Part shown: piece after piece, positions 18,850 through 56,943 of the stretch | Layout: each line of letters begins with the position of its first letter | How positions within the stretch are numbered: position 1 is the first letter of the stretch | DNA from: Colletotrichum lupini | Lineage: Eukaryota; Ascomycota; Sordariomycetes; Glomerellales; Glomerellaceae | DNA length: 64,000 nucleotides | Direction: 5' to 3' | NCBI RefSeq assembly: GCF_023278565.1 | Contig: NC_064678.1 | Coordinates: 248,001 to 312,000 of the forward strand | Translations under genes and position numbers: made by a program | Notes under the pieces: generated by a model | Told to the model about the DNA's origin: nothing | The model's input: only the letters and a program-made list of their open reading frames with translations | The model's database searches: none

Positions 18850-20300
18850 TTAGTTAACTTTAGCTTTTAGAACTTAAATATGGTACTAAGATGCTACTAA
18901 ATAGTAGGCCTGCTCGCTAAATACCTTTTTTACCTTTTTAAATAGTAGTTATTAAGTATTATAGTCTAGACTAAGCTCTATAAATAACTTTAACTAATTA
19001 AAAAGCTCGCTAGCCTTTTTAAGTATTAACTAGTTAATAATAGACGCTACTAATACCTAGTTAATAGCTTTTTTAATATTACTAATCACTTACTTAGTAT
19101 CTATAGTCTTTTTAGTTAGTATAACTAGGTTAGGTAGGACTATTAGATTAGTAAGTAGTCTAGCTATATTAGGGGAATATAGTCCAGTTATTTTCCACTT
19201 ACTTCGTATATTTAATAACGTTAGACTAGCTAAACGAGCTTTTTAATAGTAGCTTAAGAAGTACCGCTTTTTAATAATAATAGAATTATTTACTATATCC
19301 TCCTTACTAAGCTCCTTTTTATACTTAGACTTAATAAGTCTAAAGATAGTTATATTTAACGGCTAGAGGATATAAGAAGTATATAGTAGTAAGAATAGTA
19401 AATAGACGTTATTTTTATAGTATTCCTATATAAATTCTATCGTTATATAACTCCTATAGCTATCTAGAACTAATAGTTGAGGCTTATTAAGTATACTAAG
19501 CCCCCTAAGGGGGGGGGTCTTAGTTTATAATAAGAATACTATTTTTAACTACTTAAAAGCAGTCTTATTAGTCGTCTAGCTATTATCTATTATTATAAAC
19601 TCCTAACTAATATAAAGGTTAAGTTTAAGTAGAAACTACTACTACTATACCGACTTTCCCTTATATATAATTAGTAGTTTAATAGCTCGACTATTAATAA
19701 AAATATACTTAATAATAAATACCTAAGTACGCAAACTAGGCTCTTTTTTTCGCACTACTATAGTCTCTATTTTACTTAAAACTAGGCTATTAAATCCCTT
19801 ACCCTCTAGGATACTAGTCTTATTTATATTATACTTATTAATCTATTTAATATCGCTAATTTCTAGTATATTAAGTAATCTAAACTATAACTTAATTATA
19901 TTAGTAATAGCCCTATTTAAATAACTTGAATCGATAGTACGACTTCTCTAGACCTTAATTAATAAGTTCCTTTTTAAAAAAGCGTCTATCTATCTCTTCT
20001 TAAGAGGATTTATATCCCCTTAGGATCTTAGAACTTACTTAGCGAATTCTATAAGCTATTTATAAGTTAGTATAATACTTAGATTATACTAAATACGAAC
20101 CTATTAGGCTAGCTAGTCTTTTTATTATAGAAGAAGCCTCTAGAGGTCTACGAATACTATTACCCTCGTCTAGTAGCCTCTCTTATAATTACGAAAAGTT
20201 AACTTTAAAACTCTAAACTTAATCGAGGCCTAATTAACTAAGAGACCTCTTTTAATAGCCTTAAGAGCCCGAATAACTTTATTTTCGGTATACGAGACTA
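18850..20300 (-). pseudogene. pogo/Fot-type transposase remnant
   Basis: Approximate limits. In one minus-strand frame the DDE domain is traceable with TAA/TAG replacing Gln/Trp codons: a KGFNSLVLSKIETIVVRKK block (about 19740-19800), then the catalytic-domain blocks around 19440-19620, and a C-terminal tail towards 18900. Catalytic-region His codons have become Tyr and Gly/Asp codons Ser/Asn/Arg, all C-to-T or G-to-A. No active product is possible. Confidence 0.75.
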
Positions 20301-34498: not shown

Positions 34499-37400
34499 CT
34501 AATTAATAATTAAATTTTACTATCGTAAATTAGTAAGGTATTTTATTATATAAAAGAGACGACTTCTTAATACTATACGGGATAGGAGATTCGTACTAAT
34601 TAACTTTATAAAAATAAATAAAAAAGGAGACGATTCTTAAATACTATATAAAATTAAGTAATTATAGCCCTTTATTATTTATAAAAGGTCGACGTTTACT
34701 ACGTTAAACTACGTTAATTAATAAAACTACTTAAATAACTAGCCTTTTACCGTCGCCCTAAGTAGCTTTTTTATTAAACGACTTTTCTATAGCCGGCCCG
34801 TAATTAAAAATTAACTAATTAAATTAATAAAAAGAAATACCTACGTAATAATTACTTATTTAATTAATTAGCGCAACGAACGAGTTTAATAATATAATAT
34901 AAAAAAGCACTACGTAATTAAAAAAAGGGATTTTTAAATATAAATATTTTTATTTAGTAACGAAAGTAACTTTATAAGAGTTATTAAGCTAAGAGATTTA
35001 TAGTATATAAAAAAGTCTATTATTATAAAGATTTTATAAATATAACTTTAAGCTTATAATTTAAATAACCTCTTTATAGCTCCCTTAACTACCCCCCGAG
35101 TATTATTTAAGAATATAATATAAGGGATAGTCTAACGAGGGAAGAGGGGATTTAGAGGTCCTAATAGTATTAAGTTAAGAATATTACGGATCTTAGAAAT
35201 TAATTTAAAAAGAAAGCGGCTACCCTAAAGTAGTCTTATAACCTCTTATTAAAATTATTATTAACTTAAAAAAAGGCTAAAAAGACGAGGATTTAAAGAG
35301 AAAAAAAAAAGAATCCTCTAGAGGGCCGTTAAAGGGCTTTTTTTATACTAGCTCCCGGCGCGAGATTACTAATTTTAAAAAATTAACTAAGTAATAAAAA
35401 AGATCGCTAATAAACGATAATTACCTAACTATAATTAAGCTATAAAAAAACTACTTAAAAATATAAAATAGGGTATTAAGAGGTTATAAAAAATAAGATT
35501 TTTAAAGTATTTAACCCTATTACGTACGAGTAATAAGTAGGTATTTTTAATAAGTTTTTAAAATCTATAATTTTATAAAAAAGAGGGCTTAATTTTATTA
35601 ACTATACTTAATAACTCATACGGTTTTTAATAGCCTATATAGCTCTTTTATAAGCTATTTAGTATCTATTTTTAACTATTCTTACGGAATACCGCCCTAA
35701 AGAAAGTAGGTTAAGAAAAGAAGCTATTTAAAAATTATAAAAAATACGAGGCTTAGGAAGCTAGAAGTATATAGAATAGCAGAAATTAATAACTAATAAA
35801 AATCCCGAGACTAATTACTATATCTTCTTATAATAATATAAACGTTTATTACTACTATTATAAAAAAGAACTACTAAAACCTACCCTTTTATATTAAATA
35901 AAAAAGAGGATCCTAGTAAGTATAATAGCTAATAATTAAAAAGGTAGTAATAATTACTAAAAATAATAAAAACGAGAGTAATAACGAGATAGTAAAAAGA
36001 AGCGGGAATTTCTTAGACCTTAATAAATTTATTAAGTAGTAAAAGTACGGATTTATTATAACTAGCGCGCGGATTAAATATATCCCTATTAAAATTAAAT
36101 ACGCTAATAATTATTAATATAAGTATAAGCTAAAGTACGACCCTTAATAAGTTAGGGTAAAAAAAAAGAGGACGAAACCCGATCCTAGATAGAATCCTAA
36201 TCCCTTATAAATAAATAAATATTAACTTAGATTATTAAGGGACGTAAATATATAGAATTATAGATTAGCCTAACGGTAAGTAAATTAACGTAATATTAAT
36301 TTATTTAACTAAGGTTTATAAAAAAAAGGGGCTATAGGGGTAACCCCTATTTTATAAAATCGTAAATAACTTTAACCACTAGCTAAATAAATAATTCGCG
36401 AGCGCAAGCCTAAGAATTATAAAAGTAGTTAATAAATTCCTCTATAAATAAGGGGTATTATTAGTATAATTATAATCGTAAGAGCTATATAAAATACTAA
36501 TAATAATAATTATAAAAGAGGAATTCGTATTATAGAACTAGGTATAGGTTAATAGAGCGTATAATCGCTTTAATAAATTTAAAAAAAGGGTAAACGACTT
36601 AAATTTCCTTTTTATAATTACTAATAGAAATCTATTGTTATAAAAGGATATACCGGGGCAAAATATAGTACTAGAAGTACGATAATTAATAATTCCGCTT
36701 ATTTCGATTTATAACTCGTTACCGCTACTAATACGAAATTCGGTACCGATCGGCTAATAAGAAATGAGGTAAACGACCCGAAGTTATTAATAATATATAG
36801 CGACGTAAGGATCGTATATAGATATTAAAAATCTAGTAATAAATACGAGGTAATTTATAAACTTTAAAAAGATCTTTTTAAAAGAGAAATTATACTCTAG
36901 GGGGAAGTATAAGGTCTTATAAGAAACCTTAACGATATTTTATAATTATTATAAAAAAGTCGGAATTAGGGAACACTAGTACTATTTGGTAATTAATATC
37001 GTACTCGTAAGTAAAGTTTTTAATTATTATTACGAAGCGGTACGTAATTTTAATTAAAACGACTTTTTTTAATATAATTAACGTAATCCGAAGCCGTTTT
37101 GAGACTTACGATAAGAACTTAGAGCTCCTATTTAAGTTACGAGCGATTTCTTTTATATTTATAGCTAGGATAATAAAGAGTAAATCGTAAGTAAAGATTT
37201 TTAAAGAGCTTATTAATCGAATTAATAAGCTAATAAAAACCTAGCTAAATAAAGAGATAAATAAGCGGAAAGTCGGATATTTTTATATTATAATCTAATA
37301 TATATTAAAAGTAAAAATAACCCTATATTAAGTACTTAAAGACTATAAAACGCTCTACTTAAGGCTAAGATTTAGTTTTAATATTAAAACGAGAATGCTA

Positions 37401-38459
37401 TACTAAACTTATTTCTAAGTATATAACGGCCCTTATTAATAATATTAAGTCGATCGAACGTATAATAAAAAAAGAAAAGAGGCTAGATATAGTAATTATT
37501 AATAAGGAGGCCTAGATTTATTAAATAAGTAAAGATTTAACTTATAAGTAAGGTAATAGAAGAGGTAATACTATATTTATAAAAAAAATATTAGTTAAGT
37601 AATTACTCTAAAGAAGAGCGTACTAAATTATGTAAATAATATAAAAAGTCGAGGGTAATAAATAATAAAACTAGCCCTCGTTAGTTTAACTAATTCTTTA
37701 TTATATATAAAAGTAAATCCGGGGGTATAGAACCTAACAACGGTAGCTAAAGTAGCGGCCTAAAGTATATACCCCCTATAAGAGATTTAAAAAATAAAAA
37801 AGATCTTACCCCTTATATTAACGAATTAGATTATAACGAAATTAATAATATTAATTACTCTTTTTTTGCCCCATTAGCCTTTAGAAAATATACAAAGCTA
37901 AACGAATAGAGGGTAATAAAAGCTCTTAATAAGTAGGCTTTTATTTATAAATAGTAAGGGAAGGTCCTTTAGATAACGGATATAGAAGTAGCTAAAAGGG
38001 CGAATTTAATAAGGCTAAAGCCTATTTTTTAAACGATTAAAAAAAAGACGCTATTTCTTTTAATATTTAAAAAAAAAAATTATAGTACTAAGTAAATCTA
38101 GGGGTAGCTAGAGGGGTCCTTTTTATACTACCTAAATCCCTCGAATACTAAGCTTATATAAGTATTTTATATAAATAAAAAGTACGGCCTAGATAATTTC
38201 TATAAGATTATCTTAAATACTAGGGTATTATAATAGTTAACTAAAAGAAAAAGGTAATTCTAAGTGCTATAAAAGATCGCGCTAATAATACTTAATATAT
38301 TAATAGTAAGTATTATAAAAATTAGTTTTAGCCTAAGTAAGGAAATCGTCGCTTTAAGTATAATAAAAATAGAGACGTATTTTAGAACGATAATTTTTTA
38401 TATTTTACTTATTAATACCTTATTTTTTTTATATTTAAAAGATATAGATTAACTAAGTA

Positions 38460-41370
38460 TTATATTTAATAATACGAAGAATAGAATCTTTAGTAATAAG
38501 TACTTTAAGATAGTTAAATAACGATAGGGGTATACGTTTATAAAGCTTATTAATAATATAAAGTTAATTAATTACTTAACGAAAAGTGAGCTTAGAAAAC
38601 TATATTAAAAATTCGGGTACCCGTTAGTTACGAGGCTATATAACTTCTTAAAGTAATTAAGTAATAATAATATCGAAATAGGGGCGCTAAAGTAGTTAAC
38701 GAAAGTATATTACTAATACTAAATAAATGCGCAGAGCCTACGTAAATTTAAGTTTAAATTACGTAATAAGCTTAACTTTAACTAGGAAATTATTATTAAT
38801 ATCTTCTATTTAAATAGTCGGCTAGTATTATATATAATCGACGTAGCTATATCTTTTTAAATAAGGTAATTCCTCTAAGATTTATAAGTAAAAATAGTAT
38901 AAGTAGCCCTATAAAAAAGCTAGATTAATATATATTAGGGACCGCTAAACGGCATTAAAACTAACGTTAGTACTAGCTTTAAGTCGGTAGAATTTAGGGA
39001 TAATACGACGGCTTATAGTATATAGCTAAAAGTCGTACTCGTTAAAGCGTACTATAGTATTAAAAAAGTAAAAAGGGCACACTAGTAATTAAAAAGGGCG
39101 TTTAGAATTATTAAAAAAGAAAATCCGGATTCTATTAATAACGAATACTTCTAAATAGTACTTAAATATTATAACGATATTATAGGGCCTAATAGACTTA
39201 TATTAACGCTATTAGTATTTAGAGTATATTTAAGAACGACTTTAGCCTCGCTACTATTACTAAGTATAAGCTAACGAGCCTAAGTAGTTAAAAAAGTAAT
39301 ATAAGTACTGCGCGAAGTAAATATAAAAAAGTAAGTTAATAAGGTAATTATTACGCGCAATAGGCCTAATATAGGGGGTAATTTAGATATATTACTAAAT
39401 TTAGATATACGAATATAATATAAAATTACTTAATAATAAGCTAGGCTATATAAGTTAATTTTTATTAACGAGCGTTTTTATATAGTTATAAGAGATCGTA
39501 ACTAGCTACTCGAAGTATTAATTATAGTAGTTAGACCGTATTATATAGATCTTAATAAGGTAATTTCTAACTTATAAAAAGAAGAAGAGCTAAGGGAAAC
39601 TATATAACCCGTAGTAAAAGCATAAGAAATTATCCTTAACAAAATCGTCGTAATAGTACTAATAGATAATAAGGAAAAGGAAATTATTAAAAGGGTACTA
39701 ATATTACTAGTAAGACGTCGTAGAAAACTATAATAGTAAGCCCTAATGCGGTAATTTATTATTAATAACGAAGTAATTAATACCTTTTATATAATAAAAG
39801 AAAAAGCCGATTTCGAGCTAGTAGTTAAACTATATAAGGAAGGCGTAATTATAACTACTAAAAAGCCGTATAAAGGATTAGATCTTATTAAAGTAAATAC
39901 TCTTCGTAATCGAGGGGTCTATTAATTTATCCTATATAACCTAAAAAAATATATAAACCTCTATATATTTAAATTACGAATAGTTCGTAAAATTAAAAGG
40001 AAAGGAATATCCTAGTTATATAAAAATTTTAAATACGTAATTTAGGGGTATAGCAATGTTAAAAAGGCGACGCTACTTATATAATTACTTACTATATAGC
40101 GCTATAGCTAACGATTAATAATAATACTAATAGTATCGCTACGGAAGAAGGGATACGAGATTTAGAGCCGTAATATTACCTAGGCTTATACTTAATTAAC
40201 TATAAGGCTTATAAAAAAAATCCTAGCCTATTTACTAAAGGAAATAGCTAATAAGTACTTAGAAAGTACGATTATTAAAGTACTTAAGCTACTATATAGG
40301 CTCGTAAAATCGGGTACTTATTAGTAAGCTACTTACTACGACTTTTTATATTAATTAATTATTAATAATTACCTCTACGTACGACCCGTGCTTACTAATC
40401 GCGGAATATAAAAGTAACTAATTTAAGATTATTAAAATATAGACCGACGATATATTAGGCCTATTTAATATTAATTTTATCAAAAAAAAGGATAAAGAGC
40501 TTTAAAAAGCGGGCTTTATAATAAAGCTAAAAGAGGTCTTTATAATAAATACCCCCTTAGTATTTAATAATAGGATTTTTATAATTAAAAAAGAAACCGT
40601 CGTTTTTTAATAAAAGGGGTAGGGCGAGAAGATTAACCTCGTTAATCTAAATATAATTAATATTAAAAAGTAGTATAAAACTAAGCTCGTGCGAGGGGTA
40701 TATATTATAAATATTTATTAGCCCGAGGTAACTTTTAATTATATTAAAGTAGCGTAAGTTATAGATCTAACTAAACAAAACGTCGAGGTACTTAATAAGT
40801 AGTTTAAGTAGTAGTAAACGAATCTTAATCAAGGTCTCGTTTACTACCTAATCGACTTTATAACTAATAAGCTCTATATCTTCGTTAATAGGTTATTTAT
40901 AAATAATAACGACCTTATTTCGTAGTTAAGGTATATTATTATCCTAGTTAACGAGAGTATAAGTAAGAACGAATTTACTATATATAGTAATATAATTTAC
41001 TACTTATTAACTAAAAATAAGTAAGTAATAAGAAGTATACTAACGTTAAAAGTCTACGGTATAATTAACGACGTTAACCTCTCTTATATAATTTTAATAA
41101 TACTAAAGAAAATTACCGATCGAATTAGCCTTCTACTTATTTTAATAATTATTTATACCAATTCTTACTTACTATATAAATACCTCGTTAAATTAAAAAC
41201 GACGAAGGAAAAGAGGCTTATAATTAATATTATAGCCCTTAGGTAATCGTACGAAAGACGCGAAATACTTAAAATCCGTTAGATTAATAATAAAAATAAC
41301 CTTGTAAATACTTTTATAAAAGTAGTACTAAATAAGGGATTAAAATAATTCGTAAGTAGTAGAAAAGTTA
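38460..41370 (+). pseudogene. Copia-A pol remnant: integrase, RT, RNase H
   Basis: Read through RIP stops on the plus strand. The integrase zinc region (about 38575-38720) shows LRKLYQKFGYP...., where the HHCC histidines are now Tyr. The integrase core and its C-terminal patch (about 38960-39240) include AYSIQLKVV and YYNDIIGPNRLILTLLVF, characteristic of a fungal copia clade. RT blocks occur at about 39820-40200 (FILYDPKK-like, then QSPTIQRYSQRLII) and about 40440-40560 (QTDDILGLF, in the place of the usual YVDD). RNase H at about 40870-41300 includes NNNDLISQL and TKEKRLIINIIALRQSYERRE. Limits are approximate; no product is possible. Confidence 0.85.
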
Positions 41371-41506
41371 TTATACAAATAGAGGGATAAGTTATATAAA
41401 AAGAGTAGAAAAAAGGGGGAAAAAGAGACGACTTAATAAACGGGCCCGAGGTCGAATTATACCTTTAACCGTAGCGGTTAAATTAATAAAAAAAAGAGAA
41501 AGTTAG

Positions 41507-41711
41507 TATCGGATTAAAAGTTTAATTTAACTATAGTATATAGCCGACTATATAGGGGCTAATTAGGGGCCCTATTTATAATTATTATAGCTAGCCTAAC
41601 CTATAGTTAAAACCTCCTTTTTATACTTACTACGTAGATATTTATATAGTTTAATTAATCTCTTCGTTAACTACGGTTCGAACTAACTACCTTATAATAG
41701 GGATACTAATA
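41507..41711 (+). repeat. Copia-A 3' LTR
   Basis: Starts TATCGGATTAAAAG (TG changed to TA) and ends GGATACTAATA. Here the inner (5') part is heavily mutated and the outer end is milder, the mirror image of the 5' LTR. Confidence 0.95.
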
Positions 41712-41842
41712 GAGGGATCGTACTAAACGTATTGAAGGCATGCTTCTTCCGCGTGTGCCCAGAGAGATGTGTATCTAATTATACCCACGCCGTACATTAT
41801 GTCTTAACAGAAAGGTCTTCTCTTCGAATTCGATCAGCCGCA

Positions 41843-46013: not shown

Positions 46014-47681
46014 ATGTCGCAAACCGTCACCGAGGCGCGGTCCGAGGCGCGGCACCAGAAAACCTTCACTTCGGAACCCTATGAGCTCGGCAGACTGAGC
46101 TCCAGCGGTCGCGCACTTGGGACTGCCTCACCGAAGGAAGATGGACCCGAAGAACATCAATCGTCGGATGTGCCCGACGACACTCCTCCAACAAATGCTC
46201 ATGGACCTATCGAACGATGGAATTCGCCAAGGGGTAACATGGGAAGACTAGGCTTTGCTTTCTTCTCGTTTGCCATTGCCGGTATGAACGACGCAGCAGT
46301 CGGTGTAAGTGGTCGTTGATATGCCGATAAGTTGTAGATAAGTAGTCACTAACATAACACCATCCTTCAGGCTTTGATTCCCTACGTACGTTAGCCTCCT
46401 ATGCGCTCTGAATATTAGAGGATCTGTAGTGGACTTGACATTCTAATTCTTTTCCAGCTTGAAACCTACTACGAACTCAGCTACACTATCGTCTCGTTGA
46501 TCTTTCTGACTCCCTTCGCCGGTTACTCGGTCGCAGCATTCACCAACGCTAGGATTCATCAGAAATTTGGTCAAAGAGGCGTGGCCATCATGGCCCCTCT
46601 CTGCCACATCATCACATACGTCGTCCTGGCTTTGCATCCTCCTTACCCAGCACTTATCGTGGCCAATATGGTCAGCGGATTCGGCAATGGACTGACTGAT
46701 GCGTGCTTTTGCGCCTGGGTTGGCGCCATGGACAAGGCAAACACGATTCAGGGATTTCTGCACTCTTTCTATTCCGTTGGAGCTCTCGTGTCTCCACTGA
46801 TCGCTACTTCGATGGTGGTTACTGCCAAGCTGCCTTGGTACAACTACTACTATGTAATGGTGGGTCGAGTGCCACTTGGCCGGCGCCGTTGGTATTAAAT
46901 ACATGTACTAACAACTCGTAGGTCGGTGCATCTGTCCTCGAACTGGTCGGCCTCACTGTCACCTTCTGGCAAAAGACCGGCGCTATGTATCGCGCGGAGC
47001 ACGCGCACGAGAACGAGGGTAACGGGGGTGCGGGTACCAGAATCGCACTCAAATCCAAAGTTACCTGGCTTTGTTCCATCTTCTTCTTTGCGTACATGGG
47101 TGTCGAAGGTAGGACGTCATATCGGTATGGTGTTTGAAAGGTGCTAACTCGACTTCTTAGTTGGTCTCGGAGGCTGGATCGTAACATTCATGTTACGCGT
47201 TCGAAAGGCATCCGCCTATGCGTCTGGTATTTCTGCGACTGGATTCTGGGCAGGCCAGGCCCTGGGACGTGCTACCTTGGGCTTCGTGACAGAGCGTTAT
47301 GGAGAAAGGCTTTGCATCAGCATTTACATCGCCATCTGTCTCGCCCTCCAGCTTCTCTTCTGGCTTGTTCCCCAGTTCATCGTTTCAGCCATTGCGGTGG
47401 CTTTCCTCGGGTTCTTCCTGGGGCCGATGTTCCCTGGAGCAGTCATGATGACAGCCAAGCTACTCCCGAAGCACATCCATGTCAGCGCTATTGGCTTTGC
47501 CATGGCTATTGGTGGTACTGGTGGAACGGTTTTTCCGTTCATCATTGGCGCGATTGCGACAAGTAAGGGTGTTGCTGTACTCCAGCCGATTGTCCTGTCG
47601 CTGATTGCAGTCGTGGCTATCGTGTGGCTTTGCTTCCCTCGCATCAAGAAGCGGGATGAGAACATTATGTCTGGTCTATAA
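46014..47681 (+). CDS. MFS transporter, BSC6-like
   Basis: Membrane transporter resembling yeast Bsc6-type MFS proteins; substrate unknown. Exons are 46014..46304, 46371..46385, 46458..46859, 46922..47108 and 47161..47681. Together they give 472 codons (471 aa) with every junction in frame. Exon 2 is only 15 nt (Ala-Leu-Ile-Pro-Tyr) and completes the first transmembrane segment, GMNDAAVG-ALIPYLETYYELSY. The N-terminal ~75 residues are hydrophilic and Ser/Glu/Pro-rich. Other marks are a FLTPFAGYSVAA helix, NARIHQKFGQRGVA in the 2-3 loop (motif A-like), MVSGFGNGLTDACFCAWVG, and in the second half GFWAGQALGRATLGFVTERYG (motif A-like repeat) and AMAIGGTGGTVFPF. Convergent with the pectate lyase, 363 bp between stops. 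Confidence 0.9.
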
Positions 47682-48937
47682 AAAAGAGGTATAACAAGGC
47701 GCTGTCCTTGATTGTACAATTGCCCACGTAATTTGTTGCCGAGCCATAGATGTAGGTAGATGAAAGATAGAGCTCATCGATCATTTCACCACAGACATAC
47801 TGCAGTGGGAATCAATTTGGGAGAGAAGCTTCTGCTCAGTTTAAAGAGTAAACCGCACAATTATACACAATGCCTCCAAATAACCCAGCTCTGGCAAACG
47901 GTCGGACCCCATATGTACACAACAGGGGCGTATATCAACAGACCAGCAGCGTTGCGCATATACACTGAGTCAAGTATGTACAAAGAAATATCATTTCATC
48001 CCACCATACCATAATTACGACATCCAAACCGGCTGATGATCCAATTACAACTTTTGGCCAGCAGCGCCGGGGACGGAACCAGCAACCTTGCCGGAGCCGA
48101 GGGCGGCAATCTTGTAAGGCAACGAGGCAGAGGTGAGGGTTCCCTTGGGAACGGAGTTCTTGGAGCCACCGAGGTCGACGTCCTCAGCGACGGCGTATCC
48201 GGTCTCCTTGGAGTCAGCGAAGAAGATGGCTTCGGCGGGGCAGCTGTTAAAGGCGGTGCTCTGGACAAGGACCTGGGCACCCATGCGGGAGTTGATACCG
48301 GTGAGCAGGAGCTTGTCGTAGTATGAGTTGACGACGTGGACGGTACCGAAGCGGACGAGAGGAGTACGGGAGTTGATGTTGGTCCAGTGGTTGTTGGCAT
48401 AGGTGACGTGAAGCTTGCCCTTGTCCTCGCTGCCGTTGCTGTCAGAGTGACCGACCAGGGATCCCTTCCACTGTATTATCGTTGTTAGTTTGGAACTTGT
48501 TGAGAACCAAGAGACAGAAGCCAAGATCATAACAGGACTTACGTGGTCGTGGAAGTAGACGTTGGAGACCGTGATCCAGTCAGCACCGTGGGAGATGTCG
48601 AGGAGACCATCGAGGTCATCCTTGCCTCCGCTCAAGTCACCAGAAAGGTCGCAGTGATCAACCCAGACGTTGGTGGACTCATCGATACCAATGGCATCAC
48701 CATTGCTAGCCTTGACACCGCCGATCTTCAGGTTGCGGATAATGACGTTCTTGACCTGGCGGACGTACAGGCCAACGTTGTTGAGGGCTACAGAGATATT
48801 GACCTTAGTATAACAGTGCGTAAGAGGCGGTAATTGTAACCTTCACGATACTTACAGCTGCCCTTCTCTCCGATGATAGTCTTGTCAGAAGAAACGCGGA
48901 CCTTGGCGCTGCCAGAGATGGCCCCGGAGATGATTAT

Positions 48938-49114
48938 TGTCACGTAACAGGGATAGTAATCGCACCTCACAAAGTGCCCGTTACGTGCTAAATCACGTGT
49001 CTATCTTAGATATCGTGTATATAGACCTTCTCCTTTTATTTATTTCTACTTTAATAATTAAGCTACTTTTATTACACTCCGTATGCCCATTACTACGTAC
49101 TATAACTCGTAATA
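48938..49114 (+). repeat. Copia-B 5' LTR
   Basis: 177 bp. The first ~35 bases keep CpA/TpG (CACG, AACAGG, CGCACC), while the inner end is saturated with RIP-type changes. Confidence 0.95.
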
Positions 49115-49130
49115 GTTATAAGCCTAGCTC
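49115..49130 (+). other. Copia-B primer-binding site, initiator-tRNA-Met half type
   Basis: GTTATAAGCCTAGCTC lies immediately after the 5' LTR. Allowing two RIP transitions (TpG to TpA, CpA to TpA), GTTATGAGCCCAGC is complementary to the anticodon stem-loop of initiator tRNA-Met (GCTGGGCTCATAAC). Copia and Ty5 are known to prime from a half-tRNA cut in this loop. Confidence 0.65.
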
Positions 49131-50479
49131 TTAATTAAGACCCTATACTACGATAACGTACTTATTAATACGATTCTTACGATCTCTTTAAAATAACCGA
49201 CTTACTCATACCTACTTTAGCCTAAGCTAAACTAACTAGCCGCGATAGTTAAATTAAATAGTTTAACGTACTTCGCGCTATAAATAAGGGTGTCGGGGTT
49301 TAGAAATACGTCGACCTAAACGCTTTAAATTCCGACGCATTCCTCGACCCCTCTATAGCGCTTACTTCGCCCTTAGAATTCGGACGATTAGTCGTAACCC
49401 GTAATAAGAAAGAACTACGAGCCTACTAGGCCCGTTATAAAGTATTCGAGAACGACTAAAAAAACTAAGAAATCCTCTGCTAATAGCTTCTAAATATAAC
49501 TCCTAGTACGAACTTTTTAACTTCTTTAAGTACGAGTAACCTATAGAACTAAGCCGGGTTTTTTTTTACGAAGCTAGCTATACTACCTACTTTACGTAGA
49601 TAAATCTATCCTTATACCGTACTTATAAAGAGGATCTATACGCTCGAGAGTATTTAGAAATAATAGGAGCTTAACGCTAAATACGAGTAACTTATAGCTT
49701 ACGAACATAATATTATTAATACGTATATTAAAGTCCTCGCCTAGTGGTTAGTAAAATTAGTTAATGCTATATTATACGAATACGTATTTTAGAAAGCTAC
49801 TAAGAACGGCGCTAAGTTTAATATATAACGAATCGTTAAATATTTAAAATAGGAATTTGCGCCCCCCGAACTAGTAGTAAGGAATACGGTTCGAGAAGAA
49901 TACTAATAAGCCCTTAATAAAACGAGGACCGGAATTAATTCCTAACGCTAATATAAGGAGTAATAGTCCGCTTACTTCTAAACTAAAACGTATAATATTT
50001 TAGAAATTAGTAAAGAGATCGCTATACTTAACTTCTTAGTTATGGTTAAGTCTAGACTTAACCCTATATAGGGCTAACGTATATATAAGACCTTTAGTAA
50101 ATTAATAGCCTTCGGAACGTATACGAGGACCCTCGAGGAGATTGCGTATATATTTAGCTTAGTAACCTAGGATATATATACTAAACGACCTTTAGGTTAA
50201 AGAGGGGCTTATTCTATTTTTACTAGACGCTCTAACTTAGTTAACGACGTAAATAATAAGGGTAACGTTATATACTTTTATAATCGCGCATACCTATAGC
50301 GCCCTATGGCGTATTAAAAATTAGAATAGGTACTTATAGGCCGAAATACTAGTAAGTTACTAATACGAATACTAAGGAGCTATATAGAGGAAGTCCTCGC
50401 TACTATTAAATTAAGTAAGTAGAAATTACTCTACGGTAAGCTTAAGAAAGCTAGTTAGCTAAGGAACGATAGAACTCCT

Positions 50480-53400
50480 AAGAAACCTGGGTTTCCGAAA
50501 GGATCCTCTAACTAACCCATAGCGAGCTTATTAGCAGACTAGGACGAGGGCTACGTAATCGCTATATTTATAAAAAGTTAGGACTTAGAGGTAAACGTAA
50601 TTTTTAGTACCCCTATAAGTAGCGCTTACCCCCTTTCTTAGAGTACGGTAATAAATAGCTATAGAGTAATATATCTAATTAACGATAAGAGCCTATTTAA
50701 ACCCGAGAGTTGCGTACTATTAGGTAATAAAGACTACGTTAAATTAGGAACTACTATACTACTTATTACCGCACGCAGTACTCATATTATAAAGGGCGTC
50801 CTAGACGGACCTAAGGGAAAGGGAACTTACGATCTAAAGCTCTAGAACGTTACTTATATTAAGGGATTTTATGTTAATATAGTCTTAAAGACTTTATTAA
50901 ATAGAAGCGCACTCTAGTACTACGGTCTAGATTATATTTTATAATAGGGAACGCTTTATAAGAGTACTATCAAAAAGCAGCTTATCTAAAAGAATAATCT
51001 AGTCTTCCTTAAATATAAGCTCCTCTAATCCTATCCTTCTTCTACAAACCTTAAGCGTATCCTATAGAGCCTAGCTAGTATTATACTACTAGTTAGTTAT
51101 AGAAAATTCCGTCGCTTATATTAACGTACTTATAAGAGGTTTAATAGCGCGCTCCTCTAGCACCTTAAAATAAGTTATCTCGGACCTAATACTCTTTATT
51201 AATTACTATATAAGACTCGAGGTATGCGTATTAAACCTCTATTATAAGTTAAGTATAAAGTATATATATTATCCGAAGCTAAGATAGTAATCTTAAGAGG
51301 ACCACCCTCGAGAAGAGCCTCACGGCTATAGTACCGTATATACTAGGATCTTTTCTATTTCGAACTATTTTTTAATAAACGATAATATATACTCATAGCT
51401 TCTGACGAATATAGTAAGTAGCTCAGGGGGTTCCCTTTAAGGATAAAAATAGAGGAGGAAGTGCTTTTCGTATTATAGAGCCTCGAGGTAGCGATTCGTT
51501 ATTAAAAAGGGACTCTAATTTACTTCTTTAAAAGTAATAATAAGACCGCTCTTTTAATTATAAACGTTAGACGCGTATATAAGACGTAGTATAGCGAGCT
51601 AAGAATCGGAATAAAACTTCTATTTCTATATACGAAGGAACCCGTGGGTAACGCTAAAAGAGTAAGTTAACTCGTAATTGCTAAAGCTCGTAAGATGCGC
51701 CTTTTTACGAACCTCTTTATAAATCTATAGGACGAAATAGTACTAGCGGTAATCTTTATCTATAATATTACCCTACGGGAGGCTAATAAAGGAAATTTGC
51801 CTATTATAATAGAAATTAACTAGCAGAAGCGGTATTAACGCTAGTAATAAACGGGTTACTAAGTATAGGATTCTAAACCGGTTACCCCGCATTTCGGTAG
51901 CCTCTACGCATATAGCTACTAAGCATACCCTCTTTATAGGGATCGTAAGAGGGGCATATGTTAGAAGGAGTTTAAAGTGCTTCCCCGCGGGCATATAGGA
52001 TACCTAGTTAGATATATATTAGAAACGCATAACTTATATAGGGTCTAGGTACCCGCGCTCGAGTAAGTATTTATTATAAGGAATATTAAGTTTAATAAAA
52101 AAGTCTTTTATAATCCTATACACGAGGAATAAGCTATCGTAGGTAAGTAAGTAAATCTGGTAATCTAAGAGATATAAGAACTCTTTAATACTAACGATAA
52201 GTTAATTCGAGCACTCGGGGAAGTAGATCTGGACTTCGGAAATACTAATACTTAAGATAACTTTATAGTCGAGGATAGTATTATTATTAGATTTTTAACT
52301 ATTTAGGACGCTAAGTAACTAATAGACGTACTCTAGGGTATAGTAAATAAGGCTAAAGAGGCTAATATAGTCTTACTATTATTACTAACCCCTAAAATAA
52401 CCCCCTTGCGCGAGCTCGGGGGTAGGGGTAAAAAAGGGGATATAATAACTAAGTTATAAACGGCTCTGCGCAGTCTATAGTCCTCTTTACGAGCGCTTAT
52501 ATATACCGCGGAGGTTCTCGAGTTTTTAATTCTTAATAGCTCTTAATAGAACGCTAGAGTACGCAGTAGACGAGGTACTGATTATAAAAAAGTAATTCCT
52601 AACGCTAAAGTCGACGTTAATAAGGAACCCTTATAATAAACCTCTACTATTATATAAAAACAGAGCTTATAAGAACCGCCTTATCGAGTACTAAGTAAAG
52701 CTCTGTTAGGTCCTAGACGTTTAAACCAGGCCCGCAGACCTCTATAACGCTTTAATAATAATATCTTCGCAACACTCTTATATTTAAATATAAGAAACGG
52801 CAATTACTATAACTATCTCTAGGACTACTTTTTCTCTACCTTTATACCTAATTAGCAAAAAGCTATAGAAGAAAGTAGTATAGGATATATAATACTCTAT
52901 TAAATAGTAAAAGGAGTAGTTCATAAGACCTACCTAGAGCGCTCCGGAGGAGTTTAAAAACTACGACTTACTAAAGTTAACTTCTAGAGCCTACTAAAGA
53001 AGTTTAGTAATATTAAACATCTCCTACCGCAACTATAGAAGTTACTTAGGGATGCTATGGATATAGAAATGAAAAAGCTAAGGGATATTAGTATATAGGA
53101 AGAGGTTAACCGTAATCCTAAATAAGGGATCTTACTTTTATTAAAGTAGGTGTATATTTATAAGCACGACGTTAATAACGAGGTTAGTAAGGTAAAAGCA
53201 CGTATATATATAAGGGGGGATATATAACTACTTAACCCCTTATAAAATACGTACGCTTCGACGCTCGCCGTAAAGGCCTTTAGGCTTATAATAGTAATAG
53301 CTACCTAATTCGACCTTAAAGTAGACTAGTATAATATTATTAACGTATTCCTTAACGCGCCTCTTAAGAGCGAGAAGCTAGTAATTATTAAACTCCTAGA

Positions 53401-54560
53401 GGGATATAAGGTTACTAGTAAAATAAATAAACTCTAACGCGCTCTATATAGCCTCCGAGACTTACTAATTCTTTAGTTCTAAACTTTTACCTCTATACTC
53501 CGTAATATAAACATAATATATAGCTACGAAGAGATCTATATTTACTAAACCGTAAATAAGAAGGTAATACTAGTATTCTACGTCGATAACTTTATTATTC
53601 TATACTATCGAGACGACCGAAAAGCGGCTTAGGGGATCGTCGATAGTATAAAAGAATATATTAACCTTAAAGAGAATAGACCGATTAATTACTTCCTTAA
53701 AGTGCGGATTTTACGAGACCGTACTACTCGCAAGGTTTACTTTATTTACGACGCATATATTGAGCGAGTTACTAAGCGCTTCGACCTTATAGATTTACTA
53801 TATCTAGCTACCCCTCTTCCTTAAGAAGAGTTTAAACTAAACGAGGGGTAAGTAATAAAGGAGGAAATAAAGAGCTACTAAGAGAAGGTCGGGAGTATGC
53901 TTTATATAGCTATTATAATTAAACTAGACGTCGCCTTTACTTATTCGCAATTATTACGGTTCTTAACTAACCTAAGCGCAACCTATATCAAAGTAATTAA
54001 CTACTATATCTAATATCTCTATATAACGAGATATCTTACGCTCTACTACGGTAGTATACCGAGTACGCAATTATTACTTCTAGCTAGAGATACTAGCTTC
54101 GTAAATAACAAGGTAACACGACGATTATTTTAAGGATATATAATATTCTTTTTTAGTAGCCTAATTTAATAAAAATTAGTACGCTAAGCGATAGTTACGA
54201 CGTTAACTACCGAAGCTAAGCTTCTTTACCTTAAGGAAACCGTAAAAGAGACTATAGCTCTAAAGCGCCTTTTTAAGGATATTACCCTTAACCTAGGAGA
54301 AGTATAGTTAGTTAACTACGATAATTAGTAAACAATTCGACTCGTCGTGGGGGAAGGAGAAAGAATAGCTACTCGACTTCGCTATATTAATATATAGAAT
54401 ATATAGCTAAAATAAGAGCACGCTAGAGGTAGCTTCGAGGTTACTTATATATTAATAAAAAATATGCTAGTAAATAGACTTACTAAAAACCTTTTACGAG
54501 CTAAGTTTAAATATTTCCGTATACTTTTTAACCTTTACGATGCGCGAGAAGCTATTATAA
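50480..54560 (+). pseudogene. Copia-B pol remnant: protease, integrase, RT, RNase H
   Basis: Plus-strand frames with RIP stops. A protease-like region with a LQNVTYIKGFYVNIV block lies at about 50840-50890. The integrase core is at about 51330-52010 with IASDEYSKQ and AKARKMRLFTNLFINLQDEIVLAVIFIYN. RT is at about 52900-53850, with VFYVDNFIILYY at about 53570-53605 (YVDD changed to YVDN) and then ILRDRTTRKVYF and DAYIERVTKRF. RNase H is at about 53900-54540, with YTTRYLTLYYG, TTSTTEAKLLYL and YDNQQTIRLV, then RLRYINIQN. Limits are approximate. Confidence 0.85.
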
Positions 54561-54959
54561 ATAGCTAAAATAGTTAAAAATAATTAATTTGGGCTACGCT
54601 TAGAAAAACTTAATGCTCGAAGGTAGACGATAGACGGAACCTAGAGTGCGGCCCGGAGGCCTAAAATAAATAAAATAACCTTACTCCGTAGGGTATACGT
54701 ATATAAAAATAAGACCTAGGCTTATGCTTATTATTTAAACTCTTAGTTTATAAAGTACGCGATTATTAGGAGTATAGTATTATTAAAGAGGAGGGTTAGT
54801 ATGCGTATTAAAAAACGCGTTTTGCGTACCTCGAAGTTTATAAAGCTAGGAGTAGTGGGGGTAGCGGGGGGCGCGGGAGCCGGAACGATTATTAAGTTAA
54901 CGACTTAGGGTACGGAAGCGGGCGGCGCGATAGGAGGTTAGTTATAAATAATTATAATA

Positions 54960-55860
54960 AGTACAAGAGAGGACTAGGGGCGCGCGTTAAGGAAGTCCTC
55001 TATATAAAAGCCGATATAGTTCTCGTATATCCTCTAGTTATTATATATTTAGCGGACGATATTACGGAGCTTAGTAATATCCTATTAAAACTATAATTAG
55101 AAGTGCGCTTCTTAATAATAAAAAAGGATAATATACTTACGAAAAAGGGAGCGCTATTTATAATAGCCTCGGTAAGGGCCTAGGCTATTAGCCGTAAAAC
55201 GACTAGTATATCGATATACCCTTTAACTAAACGGCCGTTAAAGTAGCGCGTATATTAGCTATTACTTCTTATAAAATAACGACTATTATCCTTAGTATTA
55301 GTATACCGGAGGGCTACTTTAAAATAGGGTAGGTACTAGATCTCCTATTCCTTAAGAGCCTCTCCCTTAAGCTTTTTAGGGACTAAGTATACGTTAAATA
55401 GGCCTAGAATAGTAAAGAGAACTATACTTACTACGGGGGGTACCTTAGCCTCTTAGCGTTCTCTTTTACTTCTTACTACCCTTTTAGGAAGAGCTAGCCT
55501 TGCGTTTTTTAGACCCTAGAATAATATTAAATATAAACTCCTAAAATAATAAGCATACGACATACCCTTTTTAGAGGGCTTATTATCCGAACTAGTCTTA
55601 TCCTTACTCTTAAACTCCGAGGGGGGGATAGGTAAAAGCCCGTTAGAGCTCTTATTACTACTATTTACCTTATTATTGCCCTTATTACGGCTGCTAAGGA
55701 GAGCCTCGAACTTAATAGAATCCTCGGCATCTCGACTAGTAGCCTCGATATCTTCTTAGCTAGGGAGGGAGAGCTCGGTAGCCAGGCCCTAGTAGGCGGG
55801 TAGGAGGTCGCGGGGGGGGGTAACGACCCGGAGGGGCTCGTTAATATTATTGCTTATTTA
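54960..55860 (-). pseudogene. antisense coding-frame remnant inside Copia-B, unknown product
   Basis: Between RNase H and the 3' LTR one minus-strand frame reads about 300 codons with only about eight stops, all TAA/TAG derivable from Gln or Trp codons by C-to-T or G-to-A change; neighbouring frames have far more stops. Segments look protein-like: SQEDIEATSRDAEDSIKFEA (first residue restored from a stop), FKSKDKTSSDNKPSKKGMSY, and VPPVVSIVLFTILGLFNVYL, which is hydrophobic. No family recognised. It could be an extra element gene, a captured host gene, or part of a nested older element. Ends are approximate, and a poly-C tract near 55810-55820 may hide a frameshift. Confidence 0.45.
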
Positions 55861-56339
55861 AACTCTTAGTAAACCGCATAATACGTATATAAAAAGTATT
55901 ATAAAAATTGCGCAAAACTTATTATTACTTCTAGATATATTAAATATTTATATTTAGAATAAAATTAGTAAACGATTCGATAGCGTAGGCGCGCGCGCGT
56001 AGTAAACGGGGGTACTTATAGTAATTACGAGAGGTTAAAAAGAGGAAGAAAAATAATAGCTAGGCGACGCTACGAGAATTTAGATATACGCAAGGCGGCT
56101 AGGTAGCCTCGCCCTTAGTAATTTATATATTAGAAGTAGTAGAATACGCGCTATTCCGGGTTAGGATTCTATTTATTTTAGATAAAGGGATATATTTATA
56201 ATAAACGCAGTTTAAAAGACGCGTATCCTTTGCGCTTAATTTTCCTTTGTTTATATTCGACTAAATTAGGCCTTTATAAGGGCATTTAGAGATTCTATCT
56301 TAGGCACAATAGCTCCCTAGCGGTAGTAATTAGGGGGTA

Positions 56340-56516
56340 TGTTACGTAATAGGGATAGTAATCGTACCTCACAAAGTGCCCGTTACGTGCTAAATTACGT
56401 GTCTATCTTAGATATTGTGTATATAGACCTTCTCCTTTTGTCTATTTCCACTTTGATAGTTAAGCCACTTTTATTATACTCCGTATGCCTATTGCTGCGT
56501 GCCATAACTCGTGATA
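56340..56516 (+). repeat. Copia-B 3' LTR
   Basis: 177 bp, no indels against the 5' LTR. The start carries T where the 5' LTR has C, but the last ~90 bases retain G/C where the 5' LTR has A/T. Confidence 0.95.
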
Positions 56517-56943
56517 ATTATGGTAAGGGGACCCTCCTTCTTAGCGGTAGCAACGAGCTTATCGACAGTCTTGACGGTAACACTGGAGCCGCCGGCACCA
56601 CCGATGGTACCTTCGCTTTGGGTGCAGTAGCCGATGTTGCAAGCCTCGGCGGCCTGGCGGAGAGTAAGCTCGTTGCGGGCGGTGACGATGTTGGCAGGCG
56701 AAGCCGCGGCCAAAGCAGCCATGAATGTGACAGCTGGAAACTTTATCTTGGTGGTGTTGAGTATCTTAGGTAAATAGGCTGGGTAAGGAATCGGTTCGGA
56801 TGATTAATAGGTAAATGTCGTGAAGCGGGTGACTAGCACTACCGAAGTTGATGGAATGGGATGAACAGGAAAGAGAATGAAAGACTTGAAAGGCGCGATG
56901 GAGAGAAAGAAGAACTGCTGGTCCGACCTATCGACGGCTGAGT

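What the first reader, a model, noticed from the sequence alone, without database searches (positions are those of the whole stretch)
48045..56746. Pectate lyase split by a 7.6-kb copia element, reading frame otherwise intact
With one copy of the ATTAT duplication and the element removed from the count, the four coding pieces give 326 in-frame codons with no stop, intact splice sites and PL1 catalytic motifs. So the insertion is recent relative to decay of the gene, and the strain has lost one pectin-degrading enzyme by transposition. Presence/absence of the insertion could vary between isolates.
Basis: partly seen in the sequence, partly recalled or inferred. Interest (0 to 1): 0.75.

Follow-up and report, generated by a model that had tools for sequence, protein, structure and literature searches.

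The report
Pectate lyase broken by mutated retrotransposon
In a plant-pathogenic fungus, a pectin-degrading enzyme gene was cut in two by a copy of a common mobile element, and the smaller piece has also lost its start signal, so the gene looks dead in two ways; this is a well-resolved example of a familiar kind of gene loss.

Summary
A 7,579-bp LTR retrotransposon (48,938-56,516, plus strand) sits between a perfect ATTAT duplication inside a four-exon PL1 pectate lyase gene on the minus strand. The pieces sum to 978 nt (326 codons with stop) and abut residue-exactly on an intact Colletotrichum relative. The genome is most likely C. lupini (inferred).

'Reading frame otherwise intact' is not right. 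The start codon is gone. Exon 1 differs from that relative at 6 of 75 codons; exons 2-4 have no change that can be placed after the insertion (0 of 249, p=0.00013). All 6 fit C:G to T:A transitions, as if repeat-induced point mutation (RIP) had spilled from the element, but flanks of other copies show no general spill.

In 20 complete copies the LTR pairs differ by 422 transitions and 0 transversions, 80% at CpA: RIP acted after insertion, in a fungus described as asexual. At least 4 of 19 other complete copies appear to cut genes. So: ordinary gene loss by a gene-interrupting, RIP-scarred Copia family. LTR divergence cannot date it; variation among isolates is untested.

The parts
56522..56746 (-). 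exon 1 of the PL1 gene (75 codons), initiator codon lost, 6 codons differ from the relative P0002
48856..48937 (-). exon 2, includes the left copy of the target duplication
48543..48787 (-). exon 3
48045..48470 (-). exon 4 with stop codon
48933..48937 (.). target-site duplication ATTAT, left copy
56517..56521 (.). target-site duplication ATTAT, right copy
48938..49114 (+). 5' LTR (177 bp)
56340..56516 (+). 3' LTR (177 bp)
49115..49128 (+). primer binding site: 12 of 14 bases complementary to the anticodon arm of the genome's tRNA-Met, the two others RIP-type differences; the copy L015/L046 matches 14 of 14
   Evidence: bases counted by eye
56328..56339 (+). purine-rich tract before the 3' LTR
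   Evidence: read by eye
53153..54556 (+). decayed Copia-type pol region (tblastn match of an open Copia frame that bears RVT_2, 23.6% over 509 columns, E=5e-18)
56489..56722 (-). open frame identical to the public 77-aa protein P0121: exon 1 from an internal Met, read about 8 residues into the LTR

Best explanation
A Ty1/copia-type retrotransposon of a multi-copy family inserted in antisense orientation after codon 75 of a four-exon PL1 pectate lyase gene, duplicating 5 bp (shown by the anatomy). The family was then mutated by RIP (shown by LTR comparison). RIP or a RIP-like process probably also hit the 225-bp first exon beside the 3' LTR, removing the start codon (inferred). Promoter, signal peptide and start are now split by 7.6 kb from the catalytic part, so no enzyme is expected from this locus (inferred). 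The event is one of several apparent gene interruptions by this family.
For: The pieces match the relative P0002 at residues 1-75 and from 76 on, with no gap or overlap. TSD and LTRs. Of 29 other copies examined, 19 have both LTRs at the expected distance; 18 of these 19 have identical 5-bp TSDs and 1 differs by one transition. LTR pairs of these 19 plus the window: 422 transitions, 0 transversions, 336 at CpA, against 109 of 983 unchanged C sites at CpA. tRNA-Met primer site. Copia pol match. Exon 1 differs at 6/75 codons, exons 2-4 at 0/249 that can be placed after insertion (p=0.00013; with the one pre-insertion difference counted 1/249, p=0.00075; with all three differences from P0002 counted 3/249, p=0.006). 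All six are compatible with C:G to T:A. Exon 1 with about 650 bp upstream finds only itself in the genome, so no duplicate was found that would make it a RIP target.
Against: The RIP-spill step is weak. Exon 2, beside the other LTR, has no post-insertion replacement. The composite RIP index in 36 flanks of 18 copies is not raised near the element (Wilcoxon p=0.23; 5' side alone p=0.14, 3' side alone p=0.97). Only 4 of 6 exon-1 changes are in CpA context (context read by eye; binomial p=0.02 against exon composition), and at only 4 of the 6 positions do all aligned relatives that reach them agree. No fungal DNA relative was available, so silent changes could not be counted. Three short frames of the element gave no Pfam hit.
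Confidence: 0.9

Rival explanations
1. The gene was already a pseudogene (start codon lost) before the element landed, and the element inserted into dead DNA.
For: The start codon is lost, and one difference from P0002 lies inside the duplicated 5 bp and is present in both TSD copies, so it predates insertion.
Against: Exons 2-4 show no other change specific to this lineage in 249 codons; the excess is confined to the exon beside the 3' LTR.
Confidence: 0.2
2. Exon 1 changes reflect ordinary fast evolution of a signal peptide and linker, or relaxed selection after insertion, with no RIP.
For: The N-terminal region is more variable among relatives; other copies show no general rise of the RIP index near the element.
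Against: 6 in exon 1 and 0 after insertion in exons 2-4 on this branch, against 0 and 2 on the P0002 branch (polarised by eye); all 6 fit one mutation class and include the start codon.
Confidence: 0.3
3. Assembly artefact: two unrelated contigs joined through a repeat.
For: The element is highly repeated and reads were not available.
Against: Perfect 5-bp TSD, exact residue continuity of one gene on both sides, same anatomy at 19 other copies.
Confidence: 0.02

Closest known systems
Fungal PL1 pectate lyase B (C. costaricense P0002; solved relative 7bbv)
   Same: Same family and length; 315 of 324 codons compared give the same residue as P0002
   Different: Here split by a retrotransposon and without its start codon
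Copia LTR retrotransposons, with Gypsy the most common TEs of C. lupini (PMC11645255, section 8 read)
   Same: LTRs, 5-bp TSD, tRNA-Met primer site, Copia pol remnant, high copy number
   Different: 172 to 282 stops per forward frame; LTR pairs diverged by RIP. A second Copia family in this genome keeps long open frames
RIP of Colletotrichum repeats (C. truncatum, PMC6180176, passages read)
   Same: C to T transitions in LTR elements of a fungus without a known sexual stage
   Different: There the Copia families prefer CpT and no RID gene was found; here CpA is preferred and C5-methylase loci exist, not assigned
RIP leakage into single-copy DNA beside transposons (Cladosporium fulvum, PMC9453070, passages read)
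   Same: C:G to T:A changes in single-copy sequence next to RIPped repeats
   Different: One-sided here, seen only through protein comparison, not shown for the family as a whole

Membership tests
PL1 pectate lyase | PF00544 above cut-off | tested here: met
   126.7 bits against 24
PL1 pectate lyase | best sequence match among solved structures is a pectate lyase | tested here: met
   7bbv pectate lyase B, E=3.2e-77
PL1 pectate lyase | functional start codon | tested here: not met
   homologous Met absent; what is filed under PL1 is the broken gene's pieces
PL1 pectate lyase | pectate lyase activity | not testable with these tools
   no assay; split gene
Ty1/copia retrotransposon | paired LTRs and 5-bp TSD | tested here: met
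Ty1/copia retrotransposon | primer site from the tRNA-Met anticodon arm (copia/Ty5 habit, recalled) | tested here: met
Ty1/copia retrotransposon | Copia-type reverse transcriptase | tested here: met
   tblastn E=5e-18 to an RVT_2-bearing frame; but the element is not among the 53 RVT_2 matches, and Pfam on 3 short pieces found nothing
Ty1/copia retrotransposon | integrase upstream of reverse transcriptase | not tested
   frames too decayed
RIP | C to T transitions at CpA in repeats | tested here: met
   422 transitions, 0 transversions, 336 CpA
RIP | RID-type C5 methylase in the genome | tested here: inconclusive
   four PF00145 matches at three loci, not assigned to RID or DIM-2
RIP leakage into exon 1 | excess C:G to T:A beside the element | tested here: inconclusive
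   exon 1 positive, general flank test negative

The most novel reading that the evidence does not exclude
A fungus described as asexual ran RIP after this Copia family had spread into its genes (20 of 20 complete copies scarred after insertion, no transversion). One-sided spill of that process into a single-copy neighbour removed the start codon of a pectate lyase already split by the element, while a second Copia family with open frames expanded later and largely escaped RIP. The genome would then record a switch from RIP-competent (probably sexual) to RIP-free life.
Probability: 0.3. Interest if true: 0.55.

Novelty: new member of a known kind. Interest (0 to 1): 0.33.

Why it matters
It shows, copy by copy, a Copia family breaking enzyme genes in a crop pathogen and being mutated by RIP afterwards. 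That bears on how host-specialised, presumably clonal fungi lose enzymes, and on whether their ancestors had sex recently. It also warns that public annotation turns such pieces into small 'proteins', and that LTR divergence in RIPped families must not be used as a clock.

Tried and rejected
Rejected: dating by LTR divergence (all differences in 20 pairs are transitions). Rejected: exon 1 as a duplicated RIP target (one hit, itself). Rejected: a second copy of this gene in the genome (best other DNA match 74%; the protein P0002 is 53% identical to that paralogue). No general RIP rise in flanks of other copies. The phytase search meant as a second spill test listed no acutatum-complex orthologue among its best 120 of 964. 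GC3 of exon 1 (0.65) against exons 2-4 (0.74-0.79) was not pressed as evidence, because the paralogue has 0.92 over its whole length and no first-exon baseline was made. Rfam found nothing in the window at gathering scores. Variation among C. lupini isolates was not tested: by their descriptions the other DNA collections hold bacteria, archaea, phages, plasmids, viruses and metagenomes, so I ran no scan of them, and the genome tool says that G000 has no relatives there. Eight paper searches, judged on listed titles and abstract starts only and some of them cut short (20 of 90, 10 of 68, 10 of 39), showed no report of this insertion; the open-licence library holds only part of the literature, and supplements could not be read.

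Full report
What the window is. The eight best protein relatives of the lyase are all from Colletotrichum, led by C. fioriniae and C. costaricense. The whole genome has 63,443,975 bases in 12 contigs. A 2024 study gives 54.5-63.4 Mb for C. lupini and names CLUP02, a lineage II-A strain, as the one with most TEs (20.59%) (PMC11645255; passages, section 8). That the genome is a C. lupini, perhaps that reference strain, is an inference from size and relatives.

The gene. Exons on the minus strand are 56522-56746, 48856-48937, 48543-48787 and 48045-48470, with GT-AG introns between the last three. Exon by exon against C. costaricense P0002 (325 aa, standing for a cluster of 37 sequences) they cover residues 1-75, 76-102, 104-184 and 185-325, residue 103 being split by an intron. 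The insertion point lies between residues 75 and 76 with no gap or overlap. PF00544 scores 126.7 bits; the closest solved sequence is pectate lyase B, 7bbv. WVDHCDLS and RTPLVR are present in the translation (read by eye; that they are PL1 motifs is recalled).

The element. A 182-bp direct repeat resolves into LTRs 48938-49114 and 56340-56516, flanked by ATTAT on both sides. The primer site after the 5' LTR matches the anticodon arm of the genome's tRNA-Met at 12 of 14 bases here and at 14 of 14 in the copy L015/L046 (by eye). A purine-rich tract precedes the 3' LTR, and a decayed Copia pol region lies at 53153-54556; the forward frames carry 172, 257 and 282 stops. The element lies in antisense to the gene. 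Its GC is 35% and its composite RIP index +1.65, against -0.43 to -0.72 in six gene-like stretches of the window, -0.13 in the block of exons 2-4 and +0.13 in exon 1.

The family. The left LTR as query gave 40 scored matches out of 280 candidates, a capped list. Thirty were fetched, one of them the window's own. In 31 LTRs compared (29 other loci plus the two of the window) all 46 variable columns are C/T or A/G. Of the 29 other copies, 19 have a 3' LTR at the expected distance and 10 do not; 18 of 19 have identical TSDs and one differs by a transition. In 20 complete copies (with the window's) the LTR pairs differ by 422 transitions and 0 transversions over interior positions, 336 of 422 at CpA, against 109 of 983 unchanged C sites. 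LTRs of one copy are identical when it inserts (established for LTR elements), so these differences arose after each insertion: RIP acted on every one, and the absence of transversions argues for low ages. With the rate 1.05e-9 per site per year quoted in PMC6180176 (passage), and assuming that one third of substitutions are transversions, 0 in 3,500 paired sites bounds the mean age at roughly 1.2 million years.

Does the family break other genes? Thirty open frames from the flanks of the 19 complete copies were scanned with Pfam, a selection from those listed, so the count is a lower bound. Two copies have pieces of one Pfam domain on both sides: a zinc carboxypeptidase (L015/L046) and a phytase (L036/L071). 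Two more have a domain-bearing frame that runs into the element from one side and no Pfam hit on the other: a zinc-binding dehydrogenase (L022) and a calcineurin-like phosphoesterase (L028). So at least 4 of 19, plus the lyase; for the other 15 nothing was shown either way. I tested no expectation for random insertion, so this is no evidence of a preference for genes.

The codon at the conserved start is no start codon. All 6 of the 7 aligned relatives that reach this position have Met (P0001 begins later). The protein P0121 (77 aa, on a 6,820,665-base contig, the length of this contig) is identical to the local frame, lacks the first 8 residues of the relatives' signal region and ends about 8 residues inside the LTR. 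Exon 1 differs from P0002 at 6 of 75 codons. Exons 2-4 differ at 3 of 249: at two of these most other relatives side with the window (5 of 6 and 4 of 6), so P0002 has changed; the third lies in the 5-bp duplication and is in both copies, so it predates insertion. Without these three the contrast is 6/75 to 0/249 (Fisher p=0.00013); with the pre-insertion one it is 6/75 to 1/249 (p=0.00075); with all three it is 6/75 to 3/249 (p=0.006). All 6 can be made by one C:G to T:A transition each; 4 of 6 stand in CpA context (by eye). At 4 of the 6 positions every aligned relative that reaches them agrees; at the other two only some do.

Is it RIP spill? For: the mutation class, the position beside the 3' LTR, no second copy of the exon-1 region found, one TSD of another copy altered by a transition, and a RIP index of +0.21 in the window's 3' flank, sixth highest of 40 near flanks. 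Against: no such change in exon 2 on the other side, and no general rise near the element in 36 flanks (median -0.51 near, -0.48 far, p=0.23; L020 left out because its 5' flank is itself RIPped). I put it at about 0.5.

Consequence. With start, signal peptide and promoter cut off by 7.6 kb, no secreted lyase is expected (inference; no transcript data were seen). PF00544 matches fall at 11 further places (E from 6e-43 to 4e-4, introns not modelled); the nearest in DNA is about 53% identical to P0002 in protein. Redundancy is likely.

Novelty. Insertion of Copia elements, RIP in Colletotrichum repeats (PMC6180176, passages) and RIP leakage (PMC9453070, passages) are all known. This is a well-resolved new case. 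The less ordinary part is the family-wide RIP after insertion in a species that the 2024 study calls asexual and presumably clonal, though the same study does not rule out rare sex (passage). The word searches for 'RIP' and 'repeat-induced' in that study's main text found nothing. Beside it stands a second Copia family in which 20 of 53 RVT_2 matches lie in 1,438-aa open frames, and two copies are 99.8% identical over 3,700 bases.

Noticed in passing
L075, L076 and (own genome): A second Copia family with many similar copies: 20 of 53 RVT_2 matches in 1,438-aa open frames, two compared copies 99.8% identical over 3,700 bases. Looks like a later burst; its composition (GC 32%, RIP index +0.44) is nevertheless AT-rich.
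   Followed up: partly
L046 / L015 (C10, about 2.07 Mb): Another copy of the same element splits a zinc carboxypeptidase (M14) gene, domain pieces on both sides.
   Followed up: partly
L036 / L071 (C6, about 1.07 Mb): Another copy splits a phytase gene with EGF-like matches, domain pieces on both sides.
   Followed up: partly
L022 and L028: Copies with a zinc-binding dehydrogenase frame and a calcineurin-like phosphoesterase frame running into the element.
   Followed up: partly
window 34500-41800: 7.3-kb block of 26% GC and RIP index +1.5, probably another RIPped repeat; no LTR start of this family there within 3 mismatches.
   Followed up: no
window 19001-20000: Short AT-rich block (27% GC).
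   Followed up: no
window 56489-56722: A public 77-aa protein is made of the lyase fragment and LTR sequence.
   Followed up: yes
window 46419-47681: Major facilitator transporter gene beside the lyase (PF07690 on two frames).
   Followed up: no
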